Source of the DNA: Actinomycetota bacterium
GTDB taxonomy: Bacteria > Actinomycetota > Actinomycetes > Mycobacteriales > HKI-0501
DNA: 40,480 nt
NCBI GenBank assembly: GCA_030840805.1
Contig: JAVEDU010000063.1
Coordinates: 1-40,480, forward strand
Direction: 5' to 3'
Every line of letters starts with the position of its first letter. Position 1 is the stretch's first letter. The notes beneath the pieces are model-generated. The model worked only from the letters and a program-made list of their open reading frames with translations, searched no databases and was not told the origin of the DNA. Of this stretch, positions 27,635-40,385 are shown in pieces. Both the position numbers and the translations under genes were made by a program.

Positions 27635-28314
27635 GACGGGTTGCTCCTCACCGTTGCGAGCCACGGCATGGCCGCGGCACTCCGGCCCGGCTGTCGCAGG
27701 GCCACCAGGGTGTTGTCGAGATGGGTCTGTACCGCGGTGACCGCGAGCGGCCCGTCGAGGGCGCGGAGCGCGGTCATGATCGCCGTGTGCTCGTCGATGA
27801 CCTCCTGGCCGCGGCCGGGCCCGGCGCTGACGGCCTTCAGGCCGAGCCGGATCTGCCGGTCGCGGAGGGTCTCGTAGAAGTCGGCGAGGACCGGGTTGCC
27901 CGCGGCCAGCACGATCGCCCGGTGGAACCGCCGGTCGGCCTCGATGAAGCCCCGGGTCTCCCCGGCGTCGAGCAGCTCCGTCTGCTCGCGCAGGAGGTCG
28001 GCCAGGTGGTCGACGAGCAGCTCCGGGGCCACCGCGACCTGGGCGGCGGCCCACTGCTCGACCACGACGCGGGCCTGCATGGTGGCGTTCACCTCGGCGT
28101 CGGACACCGGCGGTACGAACGCGCCCTTCTTCGGCATGATCTGGAGCAGGCCCTCGGCCTCCAGCCGCAGCAGCGCCTCCCGCACCGGGGTACGGGACAC
28201 GCCCGCCTCCGCGGCGAGGCCGGACTCGGACAGGAAGACGCCCTCGCTCTGCGGGAGGGCGGCAATGCGGTTCTTCAGCCAGCGATACGTCGTGTCCTGC
28301 GCGTTCGATGCCAC
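27631..28314 (-). CDS. GntR-family regulator with FCD domain (second)
   Basis: 227 residues. The HTH covers residues 8-70 (TYRWLKNRIAALPQSEGVFL, SRTPVREALLRLEAEGLLQI) and the FCD domain has DAEVNATMQARVVVEQWAA, EADRRFHRAIVLAAGNPVL and DEHTAIMTALRAL. As first gene of the island's main operon it is likely auto-regulated; a palindromic site lies 48 bases upstream. GTG 28314 is preceded by GAGAGGA at about 13 bases. It shares little sequence with the first GntR protein outside the HTH. Confidence 0.9.
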   Translation of the reverse strand: MASNAQDTTYRWLKNRIAALPQSEGVFLSESGLAAEAGVSRTPVREALLRLEAEGLLQIMPKKGAFVPPVSDAEVNATMQARVVVEQWAAAQVAVAPELLVDHLADLLREQTELLDAGETRGFIEADRRFHRAIVLAAGNPVLADFYETLRDRQIRLGLKAVSAGPGRGQEVIDEHTAIMTALRALDGPLAVTAVQTHLDNTLVALRQPGRSAAAMPWLATVRSNPS

Positions 28315-28361
28315 GAGCCACCGGTCCTCTCGTACGCGGGTGCTGTACGACTGCTACGCAG

Positions 28362-28373
28362 CTTGTATACAAG
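28362..28373. promoter_or_regulatory. Candidate GntR operator CTTGTATACAAG
   Basis: A perfect 12-base palindrome, typical of FCD-type GntR operators. It overlaps a TTGTAT -35-like box (28372-28367) with TACAGC 19 bases further on the minus strand, so binding should block the second GntR operon. The half-site TTGTAT also occurs on the minus strand in the first GntR region (20893-20888). Confidence 0.6.
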
Positions 28374-28610
28374 ATGGAAGTCGGCGAGGGGAAGGGCTGC
28401 GCGCGAACTTTTCCGGTTCGTTACCCGGCGGAGGCACCGGGCCCGGGCCGCGGGCAGCGCCGATTCCGTGGTTCTCACGGCGGCGGCGGACCGCCCGGGC
28501 GCGCGACCGCGGGATCCGGTACACGAACTCCGCCCACCCGGTTGACGGCGTGCACGGATTGTGCTGCGGGACTCCCTCAGCTCTCCGGCCGATCGGTCGA
28601 ATGGGGCGTC

Positions 28611-31600
28611 GTGACCGTGAATCCCTCGCCTGCCTGGCGTCGCCCCCCGCCGTGGGCCGCGTTCCTGGGTGCCGGCGTACCGGCCACGGTCGCCTTCTTC
28701 CTGTTGCCGCAGGGCACACCGCGGGCGGCCTGGGTGGTGCTCGCGCACCTCGTGGCCGCCGCCGCCATCGCCGTCGGGGTCCGGATGAATCCGACCGCGT
28801 CCCGGTGGGCCTGGGTCACCCTCGGCGCCTCGCAGCTCTTCGCCACCGCCGCGTGGGTCCTGTTCTACCTACTGCCGTCGGTCACCCACACCGCGCCGGG
28901 GTGGACGATGGCCGGGAACGTCCTGTTCCTGCTGTCCCTCGCCGTGGCGACGGTGAGCCTGGTCCTGCCGACCCGGCCGGGGGGATGGCGCGATCGCGTC
29001 GTGGTGGTCGACGCCCTGCTGGTCACCCTCGGCGTCGGTGTGCCGCTGTGGGTGTTCGTCATCGGGCCCGCGGCGACCGCCTCCGTGGGTGCGCTCGGCA
29101 CAGCGGCGCGGGTCGTCACCGTGGCGTATCTCGCGATCGCGCTGGTGCTCCTCGCGCTCGCGGCGCGACTCGGTTTCCTGGACGGCGGTTCCCGGCGCGC
29201 GCAGCTCCTCGTCGGCTGGGCGGTGTGCCAGCTCGTCGCCGACAGTCTCTACTTCAAGCAGGCACTCGACGGCACGTTCACGCTGGGTGGGCCGGTGTTC
29301 GCGCCGTGGATGCTGTCGTTCGCGTTCCTCGGCGCGGCGGCACTGCACCCCTCCGGCGCGACCCGGTCCGCCCGGCGGCCGGTGGGCGGTCCCACCCCGC
29401 GGCGGCGTCTCGCCATCCTCGTCGCCGCGGTGGCGCCGCTGCCGGTACTGGTGTTCCTCCACATCGTCAGGCAGTCCGCGGACGGCATCTGGGTGATCGC
29501 GGCGGCCTCGGTCGCCATGACGGCACTGGCGCTCGTCCGCACCACCCGCGCGGGAGGAACGGCCACGCCGGCCGTGCGGCGCGCGCTCCGTCGGTCCACG
29601 CTGCGGCTGGTCGCCGCGTTCGTCGTCTGCGCGTTCCTGCCGCTGGCGAGCCTGGCGTACATCGGCGTGTACCAGTCCCGGCAGACCATGTCGGACCAGA
29701 TCCGCGGGCGGATGGCCACCGTGTCCGAGGCGAGCGGCACCTACGTCGCCGGGCAGCTGGAGGGCGTCGCGAGCCTGGTCCGGTCGTACGCCGAGCGGCG
29801 GTCCCTGGTGACCGCCCTCGACGGCGCCCCGGACCTGCCGGGCATCGAGCGGCACCTCGCCGAGCTCCAGGCCGCCCATCTGGAGGTGATCGCCGCCCTG
29901 GTCCTGGACCCCCGCGGCCGGGTCGTGGCCATCGCGCCGACCACCACGGATGTCGTCGGGCGCGACTTCTCCGACCGGGACTACTTCCGGGGCGCGCTGA
30001 CGGCCGACAGCACCTACGTCTCCTCGGCCTTCGCCGCCGAGCTCCCGGGACACCCCCGGGCCATCGGGATCGCCGCACCGATACACGACGCGTACGGACG
30101 CGTCGTCGGGGTCCTCGCCATGGGCTACCGCCTCGACGGGGTCCGCACGTACGCGGAGAAGCTGGGCAACGCGCAGCACGTGGACCTCACGATCACCGAT
30201 CAGACCGGCACCGTCCTGGCGGGCGCCGGGAGCGCCCCCAGCGGGATGGTGTCCGTCGCGACGGATCCGCGGATCGCCGCGGCGCTCTCCGGCCGCGCCG
30301 GGACGACCTCGGTCCGGACCGCGGACGGCCCCACCATCTCCTCCTACCACCGCGTGCCGCAGTACGGGTGGGTGGTGCTCGCCGAGACGCCGGAAAGTGT
30401 GGCGTTCGCCGCCGTGGACCGACTCGCGGACCGCCTCGTCGCCGTCGCCGTGCTGCTCGGGCAGGTCCTCCTGGCCTTCCTGATCACCGCGGTGCGGTCC
30501 GACCGCCGCCGGTACCTGACCGAGGTGCAGCTCGGGGACCGCGAGGAGCACCTCCGCGGCATCCTCGAGGCGGCGGGCGACGCCTTCATCGCCGTGGACA
30601 CCGGCAACCGGATCACCGAGTGGAATGCCCAGGCCACCGCCATCTTCGGGTACGCCCGCGCGGACGTCGTCGGTGCCGAGCTGGCCGAGCTCATCCTCCC
30701 GGCCGACGCCCGCGAGGACGCACCGCTCCTGGCCCTGGGCGCCGTCCCGCGGAACCTCGGCCGGCGGATCGAGATCACCGCACAGCGAGCGGACGGCGCG
30801 CGGTTCCCCGCCGAGCTGACCCCGTGGGCGACCCCGCACGACGGACCGGCCACGTTCAACGTGTTCCTCCGCGACGTCACCGACCGCAAGCGGCACGAAG
30901 CGGAGATCGCTGCGGCCCGCGACGCCGCGCTGGCGGCGTCCCAGCTCAAGTCGGAGTTCGTGGCCAACATGAGCCACGAGATCCGGACACCCATGAACGG
31001 CGTGCTCGGCATGTCGTCGCTGCTGCTGGACACCGCGCTGGACCCGGTGCAGCGCGACTACGCGGAGACGGTCCACAACTCGGCCGAGGCCCTGCTGACG
31101 GTCCTCAACGACATCCTGGACTTCTCCAAGATCGAGGCGGGCAAGCTCGACGTCGAGGTGGCCGACTTCCACCTGCGGCGTCTCGTCGAGGACGTCGTCG
31201 GCCTGGGGGCCGTGGCCGGTCAGGACAAGGGACTCGAGGTCACCGCGCTGGTGGATCCCGAGGTGCCGGCCGCGGTGTGCGGCGACTCGCACCGGCTGCG
31301 GCAGGTGCTGACCAACCTGGTCGGCAACGCGGTGAAGTTCACCGAACGCGGTGAGGTCGTCCTGCACGTCTCCACCACGGCGGACGGCGTCCGGTTCACC
31401 GTGCGGGACACCGGGATCGGGATCACCCCGGAACAGGGTGAGCGGCTGTTCCAGGCGTTCTCCCAAGCCGACACCTCGACCACCCGGCGGTACGGCGGGA
31501 CGGGACTCGGCCTGACCATCTGCCGGCAGCTCGTCGAGCTCATGGGCGGTGCGCTGCGGTTCAGCAGCGAGCCGGGAGCCGGCACGACGTTCCGGGTCGA

Positions 31601-32855
31601 CCTGCCCCTGACATCGGTCGCTCCGCCACCCGCGCCGATCCCCGTCCGCGGATATCCGACCGATGCCCGCGTGCTCGTCGTCGACGACAACGCGACGAAC
31701 CGCAAGGTGCTCCGGCAGTTCCTCGCGTCCTGGTCGCTCCAGCCGGAGTGCGTCCCCGACGGCCCGGCCGCGCTCGCCGCGCTGCGCGCCGCCGCGGCCG
31801 AGGGAACGCCGTTCCGTGCCGTCGTGCTGGACATGAACATGCCCGGCATGACCGGGCTCGAGGTGGCCCGCCAGGTCGGCGCCGACCGCGCCCTCGCCGG
31901 GACACCGATGGCGCTGCTGACGTCCGGCAGCAGCCAGGACGAGGCCGCGGCGGTCCGCGCGGCGGACGTGGGCGTGTACCTCACCAAGCCCGTCCGGGAG
32001 GCCCAGCTGTACGCCGGGCTGAGCCGACTGCTCGGCCAGAGTGCGCCCGTCGTCGCGGCCACCGCCGCGAACCCGGCCGCGCCCCGTTTTCCGCACCGGC
32101 TGCTCGTCGCCGAGGACAACCCGGTGAACCAGCAGGTCGTCCTGGCGATGCTCGACTCCCTCGGGTTCGACGCGGACGTCGCGGTCGACGGCCAGCACGC
32201 GGTCGAGCTCGTCTCGGTCGGGGACTACGCGGCCGTGCTGATGGACTGCCAGATGCCGCGCCTCGACGGGTACGCCGCGACCCGCGCCATCCGCCGGGTG
32301 CGCGGCCCGCAGTCCGGGGTACCGGTCATCGCCCTCACCGCGTCGGCCCTCGCCGACGACGAGCAGCGTTGCCGGGACGCGGGGATGGACGACTTCGTCA
32401 CCAAGCCGCTGCGTCCCGAGGTCCTCGGCCGCGTGCTCGCCCGCTGGCTCTCGGATGCCCGCGCGAACCCGGAGCGCCCGGCCCCGGCGGCCGTGCCGAT
32501 CCCGGAACGTCCGGCGGCGGCCGACGATCCGCTGGACCGAACCGCGCTGGCCCAGCTCGCCGAGGTCGGTTCCGGGCTGCTCGAGAGCGTGGTGACGGCG
32601 TTCCTCGGCACCGTGGCGGAGCGGATGCCGGAGCTGCGGGCCGCGGTCGCCGACGGCGCCGCGGCCGACATCGCCCGGATCGCTCACGGCGTGCGCGGGA
32701 GCGCCGGATACGTCGGCGCCACGGCGCTCGCGACGGCCTACGGCGTGCTCGAGACCGCGGACGTGTCCCGGTCCGCCGACCTGCTCGCCGTGGTCGAGGC
32801 CGAGCTCGCCCCCGCCGTCGAGGCACTCCGGGGCCTGCACAGCGACGCGCACTGA
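28611..32855 (+). CDS. Hybrid sensor histidine kinase: membrane helices, Cache, PAS, HisKA, HATPase, REC, REC, HPt
   Basis: 1414 residues. Multiple membrane helices occupy about 1-320. An extracellular Cache-type sensor (about 350-600) lies between two further helices (near 330 and 612). PAS spans about 644-765; HisKA has [12 protein letters not shown] with His789; HATPase (about 887-1000) has [17 protein letters not shown] and GGTGLGL. REC1 has Asp1074 (VVLDMNMPG), REC2 Asp1212 (VLMDCQMPR), and the C-terminal HPt has His1359 ([14 protein letters not shown]). A whole phosphorelay is therefore in one protein. GTG 28611 has no clear ribosome site; GTG 28617 is possible. No cognate output regulator gene is adjacent. 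Confidence 0.93.
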
Positions 32856-32911: not shown

Positions 32912-32924
32912 TATCGTGACCCCA
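32912..32924 (+). promoter_or_regulatory. Leaderless -10 box before the methyltransferase gene
   Basis: TATCGT (32912-32917) ends 6 bases before ATG 32924. No ribosome site precedes the ATG. It suggests a promoter separate from that of the hybrid kinase. Confidence 0.5.
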
Positions 32925-33625
32925 TGGCCTCGAGGAGACCGCGGAACACGGCCCGCACCGGACTCGGGTTCGCCCTCGAGGCGGCCCGGAGCCTCCGGTC
33001 CACGGGTTCCCTCACGCCGAGCGGCCGCCGTCTCGCCGAGCGGCTCGCCGACCCCGTCGCGTCGGTACCGTCCCCGGTGACCGTGCTGGAGGTCGGCGCC
33101 GGCACGGGTGTCGTGACCCGCGCGATTGCCGCCCGGCTTCGCTCGGCGGACCGCCTGGACGCCGTCGAGGTCAACCCCCGCTTCGCCGAGATCCTGAGGA
33201 CCTCACTCGTCGACGACCCCGTGCTGGCCGCGGTGGCCGACCGGGTCCGGGTCCTCCCCCGGTCGATCACCGAGATCCGCCTCGACCGGCGGTACGACAC
33301 GATCATCTCGGGTCTGCCGTTCATGAACTTCGACCCGGCCGAGGTGCGGAACATCCTCGACCGGTACCTCGCGGCACTCGTCCCGGGCGGGCAGCTGGTG
33401 CTCTACGGGTACGTCGGGACCCAGGTCGCGCGCAGGCTCGTCGGCAGCCGCACCGACGGGGCCCGCCCGCGGGCGGTCGGCGCCGTGCTGGCGGACTTCG
33501 AACGCGACTACGGCTGCGGCCACGCCGTCGTGTGGCGCAACCTGCCACCCGCCCGGATCCGCCATCTGCGCGCACCCGCTCCCTCGCCGCCCGCCTCGGC
33601 AGCGACGCGGGGTCCTAACAGCTGA
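32924..33625 (+). CDS. Class I SAM methyltransferase, phospholipid N-methyltransferase (PmtA)-like
   Basis: 233 residues. Motif I is VLEVGAGTGVVTRAIAARL, the acidic loop LDAVEVNPRFAEIL follows, and SGLPFMNFDPAEVRNILDRY is close to the PmtA motif after strand 4. Relatives methylate phosphatidylethanolamine or act on other lipids; a role here is inferred only. A basic N-terminal stretch (RRPRNTARTG) could touch membranes. It lies 68 bases after the hybrid kinase, and its last 11 bases overlap the convergent secreted protein gene. Confidence 0.82.
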   Translation: MASRRPRNTARTGLGFALEAARSLRSTGSLTPSGRRLAERLADPVASVPSPVTVLEVGAGTGVVTRAIAARLRSADRLDAVEVNPRFAEILRTSLVDDPVLAAVADRVRVLPRSITEIRLDRRYDTIISGLPFMNFDPAEVRNILDRYLAALVPGGQLVLYGYVGTQVARRLVGSRTDGARPRAVGAVLADFERDYGCGHAVVWRNLPPARIRHLRAPAPSPPASAATRGPNS

Positions 33626-34061
33626 TCTTGCCGGTGCCCGGCCGGGTCCACCGGCAGGAGTCCACGAGCACGTTGCCCGCGCTCCGGAGGAGGGCGGTGT
33701 CCCTGTCGTTGTTCCACACGTAGGCGTTCCGCCGCTGGTACCGGTAGGTCGAGGTGTCGGTTCCGGTGCCGGTGCGCACGGTGACGGTCGACCCGGCGCG
33801 GAGGGTGTACGTGCCGAAGAGGTAGATGTGGCCGCTGGTGTCCCGCAGGGTCCAGTTCTTCAGGGACACGGCCCGCGTGCCGGTGTTGGCGATCCGCACG
33901 TACTCGGCGTTGAGGGACCCGTTCGAGCCGTCGTCCCGGCCCGGCGAGTCGTAGTGGACGTACGTGATCTGCACGGCGGACGCGGCGTGCGCCGGGAGGG
34001 CCGACGCGGGAGCCAGCGTGGCGAGGAGACCGACCAGGACCGCCGCGATGCGTGTGCGCAC
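33615..34061 (-). CDS. Secreted lamin-tail-domain-like protein
   Basis: 148 residues. A signal peptide (RIAAVLVGLLATLAPASALP, cleavage near AHA-AS) is followed by an Ig-like LTD: ITYVHYDSPGRDDGSNGSLN, EYVRIANTGTRAVSLKNWTL, RDTSGHIYLFGTYTLRAGS and YVWNNDRDTALLRSAGNVLVD. Two Cys residues near the C-terminus (DSCRW and ISC) could form a disulfide. Lamin-tail domains in bacteria mediate surface binding; the partner is unknown. GTG 34061 places the signal peptide at the extreme N-terminus; no strong ribosome site is visible. Confidence 0.83.
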   Translation of the reverse strand: MRTRIAAVLVGLLATLAPASALPAHAASAVQITYVHYDSPGRDDGSNGSLNAEYVRIANTGTRAVSLKNWTLRDTSGHIYLFGTYTLRAGSTVTVRTGTGTDTSTYRYQRRNAYVWNNDRDTALLRSAGNVLVDSCRWTRPGTGKISC

Positions 34062-34360: not shown

Positions 34361-35242
34361 TCAGCCGGTGCGCGAGAAGCGCCGGCTGGCCGCCGCGAGC
34401 GCCACCGCGGAGAAGCCGCCCACGATCGCCAGCTCCAGGCCGAGCGGCACGTGCCAGCTCCCCCAGGCCACCGGGTCGAACAGCATCGTCGACGGCCGCT
34501 GTGCGTGGTAGGCGAGCACCGTGTGCCGCATCGCGTCCACCGCGTAGGTGATCGGGTTGGCCAGGGTGAGCCCGGCCATCCAGCCCGGCATCGAGCCGAC
34601 GGGGAACATCATCCCGGACAGGAACAGCAACGGTCCCATCAGCACCGTGAGCACGGTGTTGAAGGTCTGGAGCCGCCGGATCGTGACGGCGACGACCGCC
34701 CCCAGCACGGTCATCGCCAGCGCGGCCAGCGCGAGCTCGGCCAGCAGGGCGGCGAACAGGTCGAGGCGGTACGGGACCCCGACGAGGCCCGCGCTGGCCA
34801 GCACCACCGCGCCCTGGCAGGTGGCCACGGCGGCACCGCCGAGGCACTTCCCGAGCAGCAGCGTGCTCCGCGCCACCGGTGCGACGAGCATCTCCCGGAG
34901 GAATCCGCTCTGGCGGTCCCAGACGATCGAGGAGCCGACCGAGATCGCCGGTGCCTGCGCGGCCATCACCAGCACCCCCGGGAAGAGGAAGAGCAGGTAG
35001 TCCCCCGCGGCCCGGGTGCCGCCCCCGGATCCCGCGAAGAGCCGAGCGAGGCCGATGCCCAGGACGTACAGAAAGAGCATCGGCTGGAGCAGCGACACGG
35101 CCATCCGCGTGCGGTCACGGAAGAAGTGGATCATTTCCCGTCGCCACACCATGCGGCCCACCCGGAGCTCGGCGGCGGCCCTGCCGAGAACTCCCTCGAC
35201 GGTGCGCCCACCGGCGGCCGGCCGCTCCAGGACACGCGTCAT
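34361..35242 (-). CDS. ABC transporter permease, DrrB/ABC-2 type
   Basis: 293 residues with six membrane segments and the ABC-2 pattern: WRREMIHFFRDRTRMAVSLL, YLLFLFPGVLVMAAQAPAIS, DRQSGFLREMLVAPVARSTL, FLSGMMFPVGSMPGWM and NPITYAVDAMRHTVL. It would export a drug, lipid or peptide with the ATPase encoded just upstream (one-base TGATG overlap). In this locus the cargo may be the lanthipeptide or its modified form. There is no peptidase domain. Confidence 0.88.
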   Translation of the reverse strand: MTRVLERPAAGGRTVEGVLGRAAAELRVGRMVWRREMIHFFRDRTRMAVSLLQPMLFLYVLGIGLARLFAGSGGGTRAAGDYLLFLFPGVLVMAAQAPAISVGSSIVWDRQSGFLREMLVAPVARSTLLLGKCLGGAAVATCQGAVVLASAGLVGVPYRLDLFAALLAELALAALAMTVLGAVVAVTIRRLQTFNTVLTVLMGPLLFLSGMMFPVGSMPGWMAGLTLANPITYAVDAMRHTVLAYHAQRPSTMLFDPVAWGSWHVPLGLELAIVGGFSAVALAAASRRFSRTG

Positions 35243-36249
35243 CAGAGACCTTCCGCGGCGGTCGGCACCGGGGTGGACTCGCGGATGCCGCGCCCGGTGT
35301 GGTGGAGGAAGACGTCGTCGAGGGTCGGCCGGGTGACCGTCACCTCGTAGACGGGGACGTCGAGCCCGGCGCAGAGGGCCGGGACAAGCCGCGCGCCGTC
35401 CTCCGCCTGGACGCACAGGCCGCGCTCGCCGACGGTCGGATCGAGACCGAACCGCTCCCGCAGCAGCGCGGCGGCGGCCGTGTCGTCCCCGGTGGACAGC
35501 TCGATCCGGTCCGCACCGAGCACGGACTTCAGCTCGGCCGGCGTCCCCTGCGCGACGATCCGGCCGGCGTCGATGATGGCGATGCGGTCGCACTGCTCCG
35601 CCTCGTCCAGGTAGTGCGTGGTGAGGAAGACTGTGGTGGCCTCGCGGGCCCGGACCTCGCGCAGGTACGTCCACACCTGCGCGCGCGTCTGCGGGTCGAG
35701 CCCCGTCGTCGGCTCGTCCAGGAAGAGCACCCGCGGCCGGTGCAGCAGGCCCCGCGCGATCTCCAGCCGGCGCTGCATGCCGCCCGAGAACGTCCGCACC
35801 AGCCCGTCCCGCCGGTCACTCAGTCCGACGAGGTCGAGCATGGCGTCGATCCTGGGCGGCAGCGTGCCCGTGGGCAGCGAGTAGAGGTCGGCGTGGAAGC
35901 GCAGGTTCTCCGCCGCGGTCAGTTCCACGTCCAGCGTGGTCTCCTGGAACACCAGCCCGAGGTTGCGCCGCACCGCGCGCGGCGCCGTCCGCGTGTCGTG
36001 GCCGGCGATCTCGATCCGCCCCGCGGTGGGGACGGCCAGCGTGCAGAGCATCGCGATCGTGGTGGTCTTTCCCGCCCCGTTCGGGCCGAGGAAGCCGAAC
36101 ATCTCCCCCTGCGCGACCGTGAGGTCGAGGCCCCGCACCGCCTCCATCCCGTCGTACGTCTTGCGCACGCCGGTCGCGAGGATCGCCGGCGGGGTCCCCG
36201 GCGGCTCCGCCGAGGACGCGGGCGCGTGCTGTCGTCGCACGGTGAACAT
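35242..36249 (-). CDS. ABC transporter ATPase, DrrA type
   Basis: 335 residues. Walker A is FGFLGPNGAGKTTTIAM, the signature is TFSGGMQRRLEIARGL, Walker B is PRVLFLDEPTTGLDP, and the switch His is in FLTTHYLDEAEQCDR. The C-terminal 80 residues are a DUF4162-like regulatory domain. It powers the permease encoded downstream. Its start lies 10 bases after the Nif11-domain gene, so it belongs to the LanM operon. No C39 peptidase domain is present, unlike LanT-type exporters. Confidence 0.92.
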   Translation of the reverse strand: MFTVRRQHAPASSAEPPGTPPAILATGVRKTYDGMEAVRGLDLTVAQGEMFGFLGPNGAGKTTTIAMLCTLAVPTAGRIEIAGHDTRTAPRAVRRNLGLVFQETTLDVELTAAENLRFHADLYSLPTGTLPPRIDAMLDLVGLSDRRDGLVRTFSGGMQRRLEIARGLLHRPRVLFLDEPTTGLDPQTRAQVWTYLREVRAREATTVFLTTHYLDEAEQCDRIAIIDAGRIVAQGTPAELKSVLGADRIELSTGDDTAAAALLRERFGLDPTVGERGLCVQAEDGARLVPALCAGLDVPVYEVTVTRPTLDDVFLHHTGRGIRESTPVPTAAEGL

Positions 36250-36259
36250 GCGGCGACCG

Positions 36260-37159
36260 TCAGGAGTTCCGCTCGAGGGCGTCCTGCCAGCCCTCCGGGA
36301 CCACGAAACCGAAGCTCCACCGGTGTCGCTCGGTGGGGTTGACGATGCAGTGCCAGAAGAGCCGGAGCGGGTCCTGCTCGGCCTTGAAGAACCGCACGAT
36401 CCGCTGCCGCTCCCGCAGCGTGACGATCTCGCCGGTCTGCGGGTTCTGGTACCGGAAGTACGACGTCTCCTCGGGGTCGTCGAACGGTGCGTCGACGTCC
36501 ACGATGTACATCCGCCAGCCCGGCTGGTTCTCGTTGGTGTGCCACAGCCGGTAGCTGGACGGCGGGTACCAGAGCGCGCCGGAGAACCGGATCCCGGTGC
36601 GGAAGAACTCCTCCAGCGCGGCGACGACGCGGATCTTCGCCGCGAAGTACTCCTCGTAGCCGGCGTGGTCGCTGTGCTCGTCCAGGTTCACGAGGTGGAA
36701 GTCCCGCCGCGGCGGGTCCGCCAGGGCGGGATCGCGCCACTGGAGGGCGGCCATCCTCTCGTGCCAGGCCCGGAACGCCGGGTCCGCCGGCGCCTGCGAG
36801 GTGGTCGCCAGGTCGTCCCCGCGGAACGTCGCGTCGAACCGTGCGAGGTCCACCGACGGCGGCTTGATCTCCAGCAACGGGAGCTCGTCGGCGACGGCCG
36901 CGAGTCCGGGGATGTCGGCGAGGTCGTACTCGTGGTGGAAGAACCGGGTGGCGGCCGGAGCGGCCTCCTGCTGCGGTGGGATCGGCGGCCCGGCCAGGGA
37001 GGACGACCCCCGCATCAGGTCGGTGTCGCTGAACGCGTAGCCGTGGCGGCGGCCGATCTTGACGATCTCACCGATCGCGGTGGACGCCTTCAGCTCCCGG
37101 CCGAGCTCTGGGGAGTCGGAGGCGACACGGAGGAAGTCTTGGCAGGACCGGACGGACAT
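36260..37159 (-). CDS. Nif11-type leader domain fused to a 2OG-Fe(II)-oxygenase-like domain
   Basis: 299 residues. Residues 1-55 match the Nif11 leader domain of lanthipeptide precursors (CQDFLRVASDSPELGREL, IVKIGRRHGYAFSDTDLM). After a Pro/Ala linker (56-70), residues 73-295 look like a double-stranded beta-helix oxygenase: YPPSSYRLWHTNENQPGWRM, SYFRYQNPQTGEIVT and LFWHCIVNPTERHRWSFGFV. His207, His270 and Arg280 (10 residues after His270) fit 2OG enzymes, but the usual HxD/E acid is Asn209, with Glu210 next to it. AGGAG lies 10 bases before ATG 37159. It sits between LanM (13-base gap) and the exporter genes. A cupin-type non-2OG fold is an alternative. Confidence 0.72.
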   Translation of the reverse strand: MSVRSCQDFLRVASDSPELGRELKASTAIGEIVKIGRRHGYAFSDTDLMRGSSSLAGPPIPPQQEAAPAATRFFHHEYDLADIPGLAAVADELPLLEIKPPSVDLARFDATFRGDDLATTSQAPADPAFRAWHERMAALQWRDPALADPPRRDFHLVNLDEHSDHAGYEEYFAAKIRVVAALEEFFRTGIRFSGALWYPPSSYRLWHTNENQPGWRMYIVDVDAPFDDPEETSYFRYQNPQTGEIVTLRERQRIVRFFKAEQDPLRLFWHCIVNPTERHRWSFGFVVPEGWQDALERNS

Positions 37160-37172
37160 GGCACAACCACTC

Positions 37173-40100
37173 CTATCTCTGGGGCGCGGTCGGAGGGTCG
37201 AGGAGCAGCACCGATGGGACCCGCGCCGGGTCCGCGAGCCGCAGGAGGTGCATGCCGAAGCCGGAGATCCCGAGCATCAGGCCGGGGAAGAAGTCGGCAC
37301 TGTTCTCGGTGATGCCGTGCTCGGCGTCGTCGAAGGTGCGCCACAGGGCCTGCACCTGGACGTTGGCCTCGAGCTGGAACGCCGGCTCGTCGCGGAGCTG
37401 GGCGTACCGCAGGAGCAGCTCGGCGTTGCCCGAGGTGCCGTGGCAGAGCGTGTGGTTCTTCAGCCGGGAGAAGTTCCGCATCGTCGCGGTGAGCGCCTGC
37501 TGCGACTCCCGCAGCAGCCGCTCGTCGGTCCTGCCCAGCGCCGCCCAGCTCGTGACCCGGCTCAGCCCGATCCCGGCGGCCCCGTTGCACCAGGCGTTGG
37601 CGTAGTGCCGGCCGTTGCGCGCGACGCCGCCGGTGTTGGTGCGCAGGTCGTACCAGTCCTGCTCGGTGTCGTCGAAGGACCGCCCCTCGTAGGCGAAGGC
37701 GCGGCGCCCGGCCTCGACCCAGTCCGGCCGGCCGGTGCGCTGCCCCAGGGCGACGAGCGCCCACCCGATGCCGGCCGTGCCGTGCGAGAAGCCGGTGAGG
37801 TTCGCGACCGCCTCCCCCGGCGCGGGCTGGGGCCAGCTGAGCGTGTCTCCGTCCGCCTCCGCATGCCGCAGCAGGTGCTCCGCGCATCGGCGGGCCTCGG
37901 TCAGGACCCGTTCGTCGCCGGTGCGGTCCGCGAGGCCGAGCAGCACGGGGATCAGGCCCGCCGCGCCCTGGAGCACGTCGAAGTGTCGGTCCGCCTCGAT
38001 CCGAGCCGGCAGCTCGTCCACCAGCCGCAGCGCGTGGTCGAGCAGCGCCGGATCCCCCCACAGCCCGTGCAGGTGGGTCAGCAGGTAGACGAGCCCGCCC
38101 AGACCGGTGAATGCCCCGATCCGCTCGACATCCGCACGGGCGACGGCGTGGGCGAGGCCGCGCTCGGCGGCGTGCCGGAACTCCGGCCGGGGCACCAGCC
38201 GGTCCAGGTGGGCCAGGAAGAGCGAGATGCCGGCCGAGCCGTGGTAGAGGTCCGCGTCGACGTCGACCGCGGCGATCCCGTCGGCGGTCACCTGGTACGA
38301 CGTCCAGGGCGCGCTCGCGGCGGGCTCGCGGAGCATCCCGCAGAGCCGGTCACCGATCTGTGCGGCGTGGTCGAGCGAGGCCGTGACGAACGTGGGGTTC
38401 GAGATCTCCGCGGTCGACAGGCTCGCGGCGATGTACCGGGCCTGCTGCGCACGGTTGCCCGGGGACAGCCGCCGGATCCGGTCCGCGGCATGGTCGGCGG
38501 GTGAGATCTCCAGGTACGCCGAGATCTTCTCGGTGTGGTCGTGCACCAGCTGCTCGCCGTGGGCGTCCGCGGTGAAGATCGGCACGTCGAGCTGCCACAG
38601 CGAGGCGACCTCGCGGTCCGCCAGGACCCCGTCGCGATCCCAGGTCCGCGGGAATGTCCGCACCGTGTTGGCGAGCAGGTCCACCTCGAGCGGCTCGGTC
38701 AGGCAGCGGGGATGCCGGGCGGACATCAGCAGCTGCGCGTACAGCTGGGTGCCCCAGTTGATGAATCGCGCCGACGACCCCGTGAAGAGCCCGCGGACAT
38801 ACGCCGCCGCGTCCTCGGGCTGCCGCTCGAACCAGGCGTAGACCCGGTCGAAGCCGGCCAGGATCTCCCCGACGTGGGCCTGCGGCTGGACCAGCTGTCC
38901 GTCGAGGAACACGCGGTTGGACGCGGACGGCGCGACGTGGACCCCGGCCCGGTGCACGATGCCGGCCTCGAACGTGAGCCGCCGGTCGTTGCGTTGCGGC
39001 ACGGGGATCGGCATGTCGTACTCCTCGCCGCCCGCGTACCCACTGATCTTCATCTGCGCCGCGGGGTCCGCGGTGGCCCGTGGCCACTCGAGCAACCCGG
39101 TCGCGAACACCGAGTCGAGCAGCGTGCCCTCGGATCGGTGCCGGCCCACGGGCAGCACCCCGAGCACGGTCTCGCCGTCGCAGACGTGCGCGTGGCCGTC
39201 CGCCACGAGGATGTTCTCGAAGTGCAGGTCGCCGCCGCCGAGCACGTAGAAGATCGCGAGGTGGCCGCCGAGCTCCCGGTACACCTCTGCCGCCTCGGCG
39301 GGGGACGTCACGGCGTTGTGCCCGGCCGGGATCAGCGCCTCGTACCCGTACCCGTCCATCGCCAGCACGGGACGCGTCGCAAAGCCGACCGCCCCGTCCG
39401 CGGCCAGCCGGCCGAGGAGCTGCTGCAGCGCGGCCTCGGACCGGATGCACCGTGGCTTGTAGACGACCGTGCCGGTACTGCCGTCGGCCAGCGTCACGTC
39501 CACCATGCCGACGGTGCGTCCCCCGGCGTGGTGGTCGGATCTCCCGAGCCGGATGGCGGTGTACTCGGCGATCTCCCGGCCGAAGACCGCGGCACCGACC
39601 CGCGGAGCGTCACCGGCGAGGTGGCGGAGGATCTCGCCGCCGTACACCGCGAGCTGACCCGTCACCTGCGCCAGCCAGCGGCCGAGGACCGGGAAGCGGA
39701 GATAGAACCGGTGGTACGCCGGACCGTCCGCGAAGGTCGCGTCGAGATACGCGAGGTAGTCCTCCCGCCGCGCCGTCGCGCGGTCCAGCCCGGTCTCCAC
39801 ACAGTGGACGTTCGCGTCCGCCTCGACGGCCCAGGCGAGCATCAGCTCGAACCGGTCGAGCAGGTGCCCCTGGAGGTCCCCGACCAGGCGGGGGCTCACC
39901 TTGTCGCGGTCCCGTGCGCCGAGGGTCGAGCGGACGTGCTCCAGCCGCCTGCCGAGCTCCAGCAGGAACGGCTCGCACGCCGTGGCGAGCCGGCCGTAGT
40001 ACTGGTCGAACTCCCGCCACGGGGCCTCGTCACCCTGCGCCGGGTCGACGTGGTCGAGCGCGGCCCGGTAGGTCGGCAGCCACGCCCGATGGACGTCGGC

Positions 40101-40385
40101 CAGGAGATCGGCCGCCTGCTCCGGCTCGTAGCGGCGGTATGCGGACAGGACGTCGGCCAGCTCCTCCCCGGCGTACCGGGCGGGGGTCGCGCGGTGCAGG
40201 GCCTCCTGGTCGAACTTCGCCGCCAGCTTCCCGCTCAGGCGGTCGATCTTCCAGGTGTCGAGCGCGCCGGGCGTCGCCGTACCGCCGGGCGTGACTCCCC
40301 CGCCGCGCAACGCCGCGACGATCCGCACCCGCTCGGACAGGTTGGCGGCCCGACCGGCGAGGTCGAGGTAGGCGAGGTCGACCAT
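37173..40385 (-). CDS. lanM: Class II lanthipeptide synthetase LanM
   Basis: 1070 residues. The N-terminal dehydratase domain (about 90-640) has LanM kinase-like motifs: VVYKPRCIRSE with Lys310, YVLGGGDLHFENILVADG with His388, and HVCDGETVLG. The C-terminal LanC-like cyclase (about 730-1060) has LYHGSAGISLFLAHL, GFSHGTAGIGWAL, NAWCNGAAGIGLSR and LCHGTSGNAELLL; Cys933, Cys981 and His982 are the zinc ligands. It dehydrates Ser/Thr and forms thioether rings on a precursor carrying a leader. ATG 40385 follows GAAGGAG at about 9 bases. No separate precursor gene is seen between 33.6 kb and the window end. Confidence 0.93.
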   Translation of the reverse strand: MVDLAYLDLAGRAANLSERVRIVAALRGGGVTPGGTATPGALDTWKIDRLSGKLAAKFDQEALHRATPARYAGEELADVLSAYRRYEPEQAADLLADVHRAWLPTYRAALDHVDPAQGDEAPWREFDQYYGRLATACEPFLLELGRRLEHVRSTLGARDRDKVSPRLVGDLQGHLLDRFELMLAWAVEADANVHCVETGLDRATARREDYLAYLDATFADGPAYHRFYLRFPVLGRWLAQVTGQLAVYGGEILRHLAGDAPRVGAAVFGREIAEYTAIRLGRSDHHAGGRTVGMVDVTLADGSTGTVVYKPRCIRSEAALQQLLGRLAADGAVGFATRPVLAMDGYGYEALIPAGHNAVTSPAEAAEVYRELGGHLAIFYVLGGGDLHFENILVADGHAHVCDGETVLGVLPVGRHRSEGTLLDSVFATGLLEWPRATADPAAQMKISGYAGGEEYDMPIPVPQRNDRRLTFEAGIVHRAGVHVAPSASNRVFLDGQLVQPQAHVGEILAGFDRVYAWFERQPEDAAAYVRGLFTGSSARFINWGTQLYAQLLMSARHPRCLTEPLEVDLLANTVRTFPRTWDRDGVLADREVASLWQLDVPIFTADAHGEQLVHDHTEKISAYLEISPADHAADRIRRLSPGNRAQQARYIAASLSTAEISNPTFVTASLDHAAQIGDRLCGMLREPAASAPWTSYQVTADGIAAVDVDADLYHGSAGISLFLAHLDRLVPRPEFRHAAERGLAHAVARADVERIGAFTGLGGLVYLLTHLHGLWGDPALLDHALRLVDELPARIEADRHFDVLQGAAGLIPVLLGLADRTGDERVLTEARRCAEHLLRHAEADGDTLSWPQPAPGEAVANLTGFSHGTAGIGWALVALGQRTGRPDWVEAGRRAFAYEGRSFDDTEQDWYDLRTNTGGVARNGRHYANAWCNGAAGIGLSRVTSWAALGRTDERLLRESQQALTATMRNFSRLKNHTLCHGTSGNAELLLRYAQLRDEPAFQLEANVQVQALWRTFDDAEHGITENSADFFPGLMLGISGFGMHLLRLADPARVPSVLLLDPPTAPQR

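What the first reader, a model, noticed from the sequence alone, without database searches (positions are those of the whole stretch)
36260..37159. Nif11 leader domain fused to an oxygenase-like enzyme beside LanM
Seen: a Nif11-type leader (residues 1-55), a linker, then a beta-helix domain with His207, His270 and Arg280. Known: Nif11 domains normally serve as leader peptides on short RiPP precursors. Here the leader is attached to a large enzyme-like domain inside a lanM operon with no free precursor visible. Either the fusion protein uses its leader to dock onto LanM or LanM's product as a tailoring oxygenase, or the enzyme itself is modified by LanM. Both would be unusual. The HxN instead of HxD/E in the iron site adds to the oddity.
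Basis: partly seen in the sequence, partly recalled or inferred. Interest (0 to 1): 0.8.

Follow-up and report, generated by a model that had tools for sequence, protein, structure and literature searches.

The report
Hydroxylase of a cinnamycin-type lantibiotic cluster
The protein is CinX, the known enzyme that adds a hydroxyl group to one aspartate of cinnamycin-like antibiotics; it looked odd only because the genome assembly broke just before the antibiotic's own gene, although what its extra leader-like front domain does is still an open question.

Summary
ORF 36260-37159 lies on the minus strand and encodes 299 aa: a Nif11 domain (residues 1-48, Pfam E = 3e-6), a linker, and a domain with H207, N209, H270 and R280. 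AlphaFold (mean pLDDT 90.8) models that domain as a 2-oxoglutarate/Fe(II)-type double-stranded beta-helix. The missing precursor is an assembly artefact: the window is a whole contig ending about 95 bp before the lanM start, and contig C75 of the same genome overlaps that end. C75 carries a cinnamycin-family precursor (core CVQSCSFGPFTIVCDGSTK), a DurN homologue, a SARP regulator, a CinK/CinR-like pair and a phospholipid-methyltransferase-like gene. The gene is therefore a CinX/DurX/KyaX orthologue (55% identical to X of Streptomyces cinnamoneus); characterised relatives beta-hydroxylate Asp15. The 'fusion' and the 'HxN' occur in 37 of 37 aligned homologues. LanM modification of the enzyme is unlikely. 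I found no explanation of the Nif11 domain in the passages I could read; I favour an accessory recognition or docking role, untested. New member of a known kind; the open question gives modest interest.

The parts
36260..37159 (-). CinX-type Asp15 beta-hydroxylase (299 aa) with N-terminal Nif11 domain
   Evidence: 55% identical (tblastn) to X of S. cinnamoneus JCM 4633 (L026)
37016..37159 (-). Nif11 domain, residues 1-48
   Evidence: Pfam PF07862 E = 3e-6; found again at G000:C97:37016-37159
36287..36949 (-). 2OG/Fe(II)-type double-stranded beta-helix domain, about residues 71-291, with H207, N209, H270, R280
   Evidence: AlphaFold model; structural matches span residues 71-290
37173..40385 (-). 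LanM (CinM-type class II lanthipeptide synthetase, 1070 aa)
   Evidence: TIGR03897 E = 8e-159; start codon and ribosome site read
35242..36249 (-). CinT-type ABC transporter ATPase
   Evidence: ABC_tran; drrA-like, just below that model's cut-off; 80% identical to its S. cinnamoneus counterpart
34361..35242 (-). CinH-type ABC-2 permease
   Evidence: ABC2_membrane; drrB-like, below that model's cut-off; 73% identical to its S. cinnamoneus counterpart
32924..33625 (+). Phospholipid N-methyltransferase-like gene, possible second immunity gene
   Evidence: Best NCBIfam matches are ornithine-lipid and phospholipid N-methyltransferases, far below cut-off; 55% identical to a gene beside the kinase-regulator pair in S. 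cinnamoneus and 56% to the copy on contig C75
40330..40480 (-). Contig end that overlaps the end of contig C75; the precursor, DurN-like, kinase, regulator and SARP genes lie on C75 (L015), outside the window

Best explanation
The protein is a CinX/DurX/KyaX orthologue, a 2-oxoglutarate- and Fe(II)-dependent peptide hydroxylase. Its double-stranded beta-helix domain converts Asp15 of the cinnamycin-type precursor to beta-hydroxyaspartate. The hydroxyl group is needed for activity of the finished lantibiotic in known family members. LanM makes the thioether rings, the DurN-like protein makes the lysinoalanine bridge, and CinT/CinH export the product. The N-terminal Nif11 domain is a constant part of the enzyme family examined here; most likely it is an accessory recognition or docking module (towards LanM or the LanM-bound precursor). 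Shown: domain make-up, gene order, precursor in the same genome, conservation. Predicted: the fold. Carried over from characterised relatives: the reaction. Inferred only: the role of the Nif11 domain.
For: The own genome holds the precursor on the adjoining contig; it matches NCBIfam cinnamycin family (E = 4e-33) and Pfam DurB-like (2e-31), with Cys14-Asp15-Gly16. A DurN homologue matches Pfam DurN (5e-40). The contig ends overlap (149 columns, score 204; best of 200 shuffles 35; the window's other end 29). S. cinnamoneus JCM 4633 (L026) has a 55% identical X of 325 aa, the length given for CinX in PMC6974636, in the same gene order behind a cinnamycin-type precursor. A lanM match lies upstream on the same strand in 37 of 37 named loci (partial in L024, L047, L051) and a precursor is found in 33 of 37. 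Papers, passages read: deletion of cinX gives inactive deoxycinnamycin (PMC5408092); KyaX/DurX assigned to Asp15 hydroxylation, DurX confirmed biochemically (PMC6974636); DurX needs the Gly next to the Asp (PMC10373908). The model's structural relatives are 2OG hydroxylases.
Against: No activity was measured for this protein. The metal site is H-T-N...H, without the usual acidic ligand; S. cinnamoneus X shares this. The domain has no Pfam or NCBIfam oxygenase match and no oxygenase hit in the PDB by sequence. Foldseek E-values are good (to 8e-7) but the TM-scores are low (0.26-0.37 by query length in the 50 rows shown). The two contigs were linked by an imperfect overlap of contig ends, not by reads. 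Nothing computed here shows what the Nif11 domain binds.
Confidence: 0.95

Rival explanations
1. The Nif11 domain docks CinX onto LanM: it mimics a leader peptide and brings the hydroxylase to the LanM-bound precursor (a built-in leader).
For: The domain aligns over its whole length with free-standing Nif11 proteins, some with leader-like GG sites (hhalign probability 99.3%, E = 4.5e-20; sequences; that set was itself gathered with the X profile, so the E-value is flattering; the independent Pfam match is). It is kept in 37 of 37 aligned X proteins and lanM is nearby in 37 of 37 loci. T27 and E31 are invariant in X but variable in 37 free Nif11 proteins.
Against: The real precursor's leader is not detectably Nif11 (hhalign probability 5%) but weakly NHLP-like (below cut-offs), so LanM of this system need not bind Nif11 domains. 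No binding data.
Confidence: 0.25
2. The Nif11 domain binds the precursor (leader or core) or serves folding or dimerisation of CinX itself.
For: Conservation as above; a helical N-terminal module on a low-confidence (probably flexible) linker is predicted.
Against: No direct evidence; linker length varies widely and the module is less conserved (mean pairwise identity 0.42 against 0.69 for residues 151-290).
Confidence: 0.4
3. LanM modifies the CinX fusion protein itself, using its Nif11 domain as a leader.
For: Nif11 domains serve as leaders of lanthipeptide precursors elsewhere (PMC2887384, passages).
Against: The stretch after the domain has no Cys in 36 of 37 members; Ser and Thr are present there but, by eye, in no fixed pattern. 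A dedicated precursor exists.
Confidence: 0.02
4. The enzyme is not a cinnamycin-type hydroxylase but acts on another peptide or has lost activity because of the HxN site.
For: An Asn in place of the Asp/Glu iron ligand is unusual for 2OG oxygenases in general (recalled).
Against: X of S. cinnamoneus, encoded behind a cinnamycin-type precursor, has the same H-T-N, and cinX deletion in that species gives deoxycinnamycin (PMC5408092).
Confidence: 0.03

Closest known systems
CinX / DurX / KyaX / DivX / RumX (Asp15 beta-hydroxylases of cinnamycin-type lantibiotics)
   Same: Gene set N-A-M-X-T-H, full-length similarity including the Nif11 domain, the invariant H-T-N...H...R residues, precursor with Cys-Asp-Gly
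   Different: Only in sequence (55% identical to X of S. cinnamoneus) and in its precursor: three changes from the core of L026 (R2V, F12I, N17S). DurX, KyaX, DivX and RumX sequences were not fetched by name; they are known to me here from passages
Nif11-type RiPP leaders (PF07862, TIGR03798)
   Same: Full-length match of the domain
   Different: Here at the front of an enzyme; an enzyme domain follows, not a cleavage site with a Cys/Ser/Thr core
Aspartyl/asparaginyl beta-hydroxylase AspH (PF05118)
   Same: Same kind of reaction on Asp (recalled); same His+9 Arg and His+10 Arg spacing as in the PF05118 protein of L053 (by eye); AspH too lacks the acidic iron ligand (recalled)
   Different: No significant profile match (hhalign probability 0.5%; no PF05118 match)
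Prolyl hydroxylases (PHD2, Pseudomonas putida P4H)
   Same: Predicted fold: Z 11.6, 155 residues, 3.5 A to PHD2
   Different: Sequence identity 6-11% in the rows shown; HxD there (recalled), HxN here

Membership tests
CinX family of cinnamycin-type clusters | Full-length similarity to X of a cinnamycin producer species | tested here: met
   L026 (S. cinnamoneus JCM 4633), query residues 1-299 at 55%
CinX family of cinnamycin-type clusters | Encoded with a cinnamycin-family precursor, CinM and DurN homologue | tested here: met
   precursor and DurN homologue on contig C75, which overlaps the window's end
CinX family of cinnamycin-type clusters | Substrate Asp15 followed by Gly16 | tested here: met
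   Core CVQSCSFGPFTIVCDGSTK
CinX family of cinnamycin-type clusters | Fe(II)/2OG-dependent hydroxylation of Asp15 | not testable with these tools
   Needs enzymology; reported for relatives in PMC5408092 and PMC6974636 (passages)
Nif11 (PF07862) | Profile match above the gathering score | tested here: met
   27.8 bits against 23.8
Nif11-type RiPP precursor (TIGR03798) | Score above the curated cut-off | tested here: not met
   21.2 of 32.3 bits; an enzyme domain follows the Nif11 part
2OG/Fe(II) oxygenase superfamily (fold) | Double-stranded beta-helix fold | tested here: met
   On a predicted model only: Foldseek E to 8e-7 with low TM-scores (0.26-0.37), VIA Z to 11.6; the rows shown are 2OG oxygenases by title or by recall, except the uncharacterised 2rg4
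Canonical HxD/E...H group of 2OG oxygenases | HxD/E...H facial triad | tested here: not met
   HxN in 37 of 37 aligned members; 2OG enzymes without the acid exist (recalled), so this is a variant site, not an exclusion from the superfamily
AspH family (PF05118) | Significant sequence-profile match | tested here: not met
   No PF05118 match at E <= 1; hhalign probability 0.5%

The most novel reading that the evidence does not exclude
CinX carries a captured RiPP leader domain as a permanent docking tag: the Nif11 module recruits the hydroxylase to LanM, or to LanM with its bound precursor, so that one enzyme wears another substrate family's leader to join an assembly. The conserved H-T-N iron site would in addition be a carboxylate-free variant of the 2OG site.
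Probability: 0.25. Interest if true: 0.55.

Novelty: new member of a known kind. Interest (0 to 1): 0.3.

Why it matters
It adds one more, apparently complete, cinnamycin-type cluster whose predicted core differs from the other cores listed, and shows that the first impression of an orphan LanM-oxygenase operon came from a contig break. The useful residue is a question that can be tested at once: why all 37 aligned X proteins, from Actinomycetota and Cyanobacteria, keep a leader-type Nif11 domain at their front. If it docks onto LanM it would be a handle for attaching tailoring enzymes to lanthipeptide synthetases. The shared HxN iron site also deserves a structure.

Tried and rejected
Plasmid records (E <= 1e-5) and viral contigs gave no homologue. 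Single-sequence comparison with the PDB gave nothing. The five-sequence profile gave one weak Nif11 hit, 9zn4 (E = 0.11); the 37-sequence profile gives 9zn4 at 4.5e-5, the next hits (fatty-acid-binding proteins, E >= 0.56) being taken as chance, and no oxygenase. Membership in AspH (PF05118) was tried because of the matching His-Arg spacings; comparison with a profile of PF05118 proteins from six loci (the script did not print how many entered) gave nothing significant. AspH structures are not among the 50 rows shown, which does not exclude them. Common origin of the Nif11 domain and the precursor's own leader: not supported (hhalign probability 5%; some of the leaders in that set were cut at an inner Met by the script). 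A tree of X and free Nif11 domains did not make X monophyletic under any rooting tried; the domain is short. A possible natural LanM-CinX fusion in L051 was checked and turned out to be a decayed remnant with frameshifts. A literature search on non-heme iron with Asp15 and cinnamycin found no paper. One for HXN facial triads gave one paper in whose main text the term was not found. The primary papers on CinX and DurX biochemistry (PMC3163434, PMC5244291) are not held, so a role of the Nif11 domain may be discussed there.

Rows dropped and biases: L051 was left out of the alignment of 37 (36 named loci plus the window). The scan used two peptide patterns, one containing HTN, so the 37 of 37 for HTN is partly built in; L037, L042, L044, L046, L047 and L052 could match only the other pattern and have HTN too, while the decayed L051 has HTD. 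The regular expressions used to find cores all but require Cys-Asp (one search also allowed Cys-Asn), so they cannot count against Asp15. Genome searches score a limited number of candidates per genome (5, 6).

Full report
What is there. The reported coordinates hold an open reading frame on the minus strand, 13 bp after the lanM stop and with an AGGAG site. Residues 1-48 match Pfam Nif11 from end to end (E = 3e-6, above the gathering score); NCBIfam's leader_Nif11 matches below its cut-off. The remainder has no match of weight (Pfam Cu-oxidase_2 at E = 0.14, below its cut-off). The neighbours are LanM (37173-40385), an ABC ATPase (35242-36249) and an ABC-2 permease (34361-35242), all on the minus strand.

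Why no precursor was seen. The window is the whole of contig C97 (40480 bp), and lanM starts about 95 bp from its end. Besides the own genome, 4 of 393 genomes of the class carry a full-length homologue; in all 4 a precursor ending in a cinnamycin-like core lies just before lanM. Searching the own genome with such a precursor and with a DurN-like protein found both on contig C75 (the precursor query also gave two chance-level matches, E 0.6 and 0.9). C75 is 10608 bp long and ends inside the start of lanM. Its last bases align with the end of C97 over 149 columns, with mismatches (score 204; best of 200 shuffles 35; the window's other end 29). The stretch after the precursor gene folds into a hairpin (-59.4 kcal/mol, z = -2.1, 7 of 200 shuffles at least as stable), which is only moderately unusual. 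An attenuator at this place is described for the cin cluster (PMC5408092, passages), and the hairpin may be why the assembly broke (inference).

What the cluster is. The C75 precursor matches the cinnamycin family (E = 4e-33) and DurB-like (2e-31); its predicted core is CVQSCSFGPFTIVCDGSTK, against CRQSCSFGPFTFVCDGNTK in S. cinnamoneus JCM 4633 (L026; I recall the latter as cinnamycin's). Asp15, Gly16, Ser6 and Lys19 are kept. The DurN homologue matches Pfam DurN (5e-40). C75 also holds a SARP-type regulator, a kinase-regulator pair (64% and 77% identical to the S. cinnamoneus pair) and a phospholipid-methyltransferase-like gene (63%). This fits the published make-up of the cinnamycin cluster, where methylation of PE gives immunity (PMC5408092, start of abstract and passages). 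X of L026 is 325 aa long, as given for CinX in PMC6974636.

The family. A scan of named genomes found 37 loci: 28 Actinomycetota and 9 Cyanobacteria, judged from the record titles. A lanM match lies upstream of X on the same strand in 37 of 37, within about 1.1 kb; in L024, L047 and L051 only part of lanM matches; in L041, L044, L048 and L052 a gap of 0.6-1.1 kb lies between. A precursor is found in 33 of 37 (not in L020, L024, L047, L051) and a DurN homologue in 33 of 37 (not in L020, L024, L040, L051). L020 ends at a contig edge; L051 is decayed. All 37 proteins aligned (the window plus 36 loci, L051 left out) match Nif11 at E <= 1, the best at 2e-12. In 386 cyanobacterial genomes 93 have a match; only 3 have a full-length X (E around 1e-140), and all other listed matches end at profile position 92 or before, that is, in the Nif11 part or just behind it (at most six candidates per genome scored). 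In 396 genomes of the own phylum only the own genome matched (at most five candidates scored). So within these searches no catalytic domain was found without a Nif11 domain in an intact gene, and none away from lanM among the loci whose surroundings I examined. In the own genome and in that of S. cinnamoneus, X is the only Nif11 match at E <= 0.001.

Active site and fold. The model from 37 sequences is confident (mean pLDDT 90.8): helices 3-15, 17-25, 29-38 and 45-54 (the Nif11 module), a low-confidence linker, then a double-stranded beta-helix. Structure matches are 2OG hydroxylases (best Z 11.6 over 155 residues, 3.5 A, to PHD2; Foldseek E 8e-7 to a prolyl hydroxylase, though with TM-scores of only 0.26-0.37 by query length in the rows shown). 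H207, T208, N209, R216, H270 and R280 are invariant in 37 of 37, with the pattern bias told under Tried and rejected. The HxN is thus a shared property of the family, S. cinnamoneus X included, not of this protein. The Arg spacings equal those of the PF05118 protein in L053 (by eye), but sequence comparison gives no support for kinship.

The Nif11 domain. It aligns fully with free-standing Nif11 proteins, several of which look like leader-plus-core precursors with a GG site (that set was gathered with the X profile itself, so the independent evidence is Pfam). It does not align significantly with the precursor's own leader, which weakly resembles NHLP-clan leaders (below cut-offs). T27 and E31 are invariant in X and variable in 37 free Nif11 proteins. 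The following linker has no Cys in 36 of 37 members, so LanM modification of the enzyme is improbable. [quoted passage not shown] The main texts of PMC5408092, PMC6974636 and PMC12837462 do not hold the word Nif11. Searches for Nif11 with cinnamycin or with leader, fused and hydroxylase listed eight different papers; I read passages of four (PMC6165096, PMC12636437, PMC12328550, PMC9505594) and saw no discussion of the domain's role; the other four I saw only in the listing. The primary CinX/DurX papers are not held.

Verdict. The finding is a real and correctly seen CinX orthologue in a cinnamycin-type cluster split by an assembly gap: a new member of a known kind. What remains interesting is the unexplained leader-type domain shared by the whole aligned family and the carboxylate-free iron motif.

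Noticed in passing
window 32924-33625 (+): A second phospholipid-methyltransferase-like gene, 56% identical to the copy on contig C75 and 55% to the gene beside the kinase-regulator pair in S. cinnamoneus. Of 37 named loci 7 show one match to the C75 copy and none two, within the stretches held. Possibly a duplicated immunity gene.
   Followed up: partly
L051 7982-9487: Actinomadura sp. DC4 carries a decayed lanM-X remnant: missing parts of both genes and frameshifts, with HTD instead of HTN.
   Followed up: partly
L024 8290-9900 and L047 8046-9909: Full-length X beside a match to only the C-terminal part of lanM and without a precursor found in the stretch held; remnants or rearranged clusters.
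   Followed up: no
L044 and L048, before lanM: Cyanobacterial clusters with two different cinnamycin-like precursors each.
   Followed up: no
L042 4828-5118, L046 5033-5341, L045 5080-5409, L025 5250-5564: Precursors whose core departs from the usual Gly-Pro stretch (for example CASTCSASIFTIVCDGTTK in L042), so the ring geometry may differ.
   Followed up: no
window 33615-34061 (-): Small protein, secreted by the look of its N-terminus, with a Lamin Tail Domain (E = 3e-24), next to the transporter genes.
   Followed up: no
window 28308-32855 (+): Very large hybrid sensor kinase with Cache, PAS, kinase, two receiver and Hpt domains.
   Followed up: no
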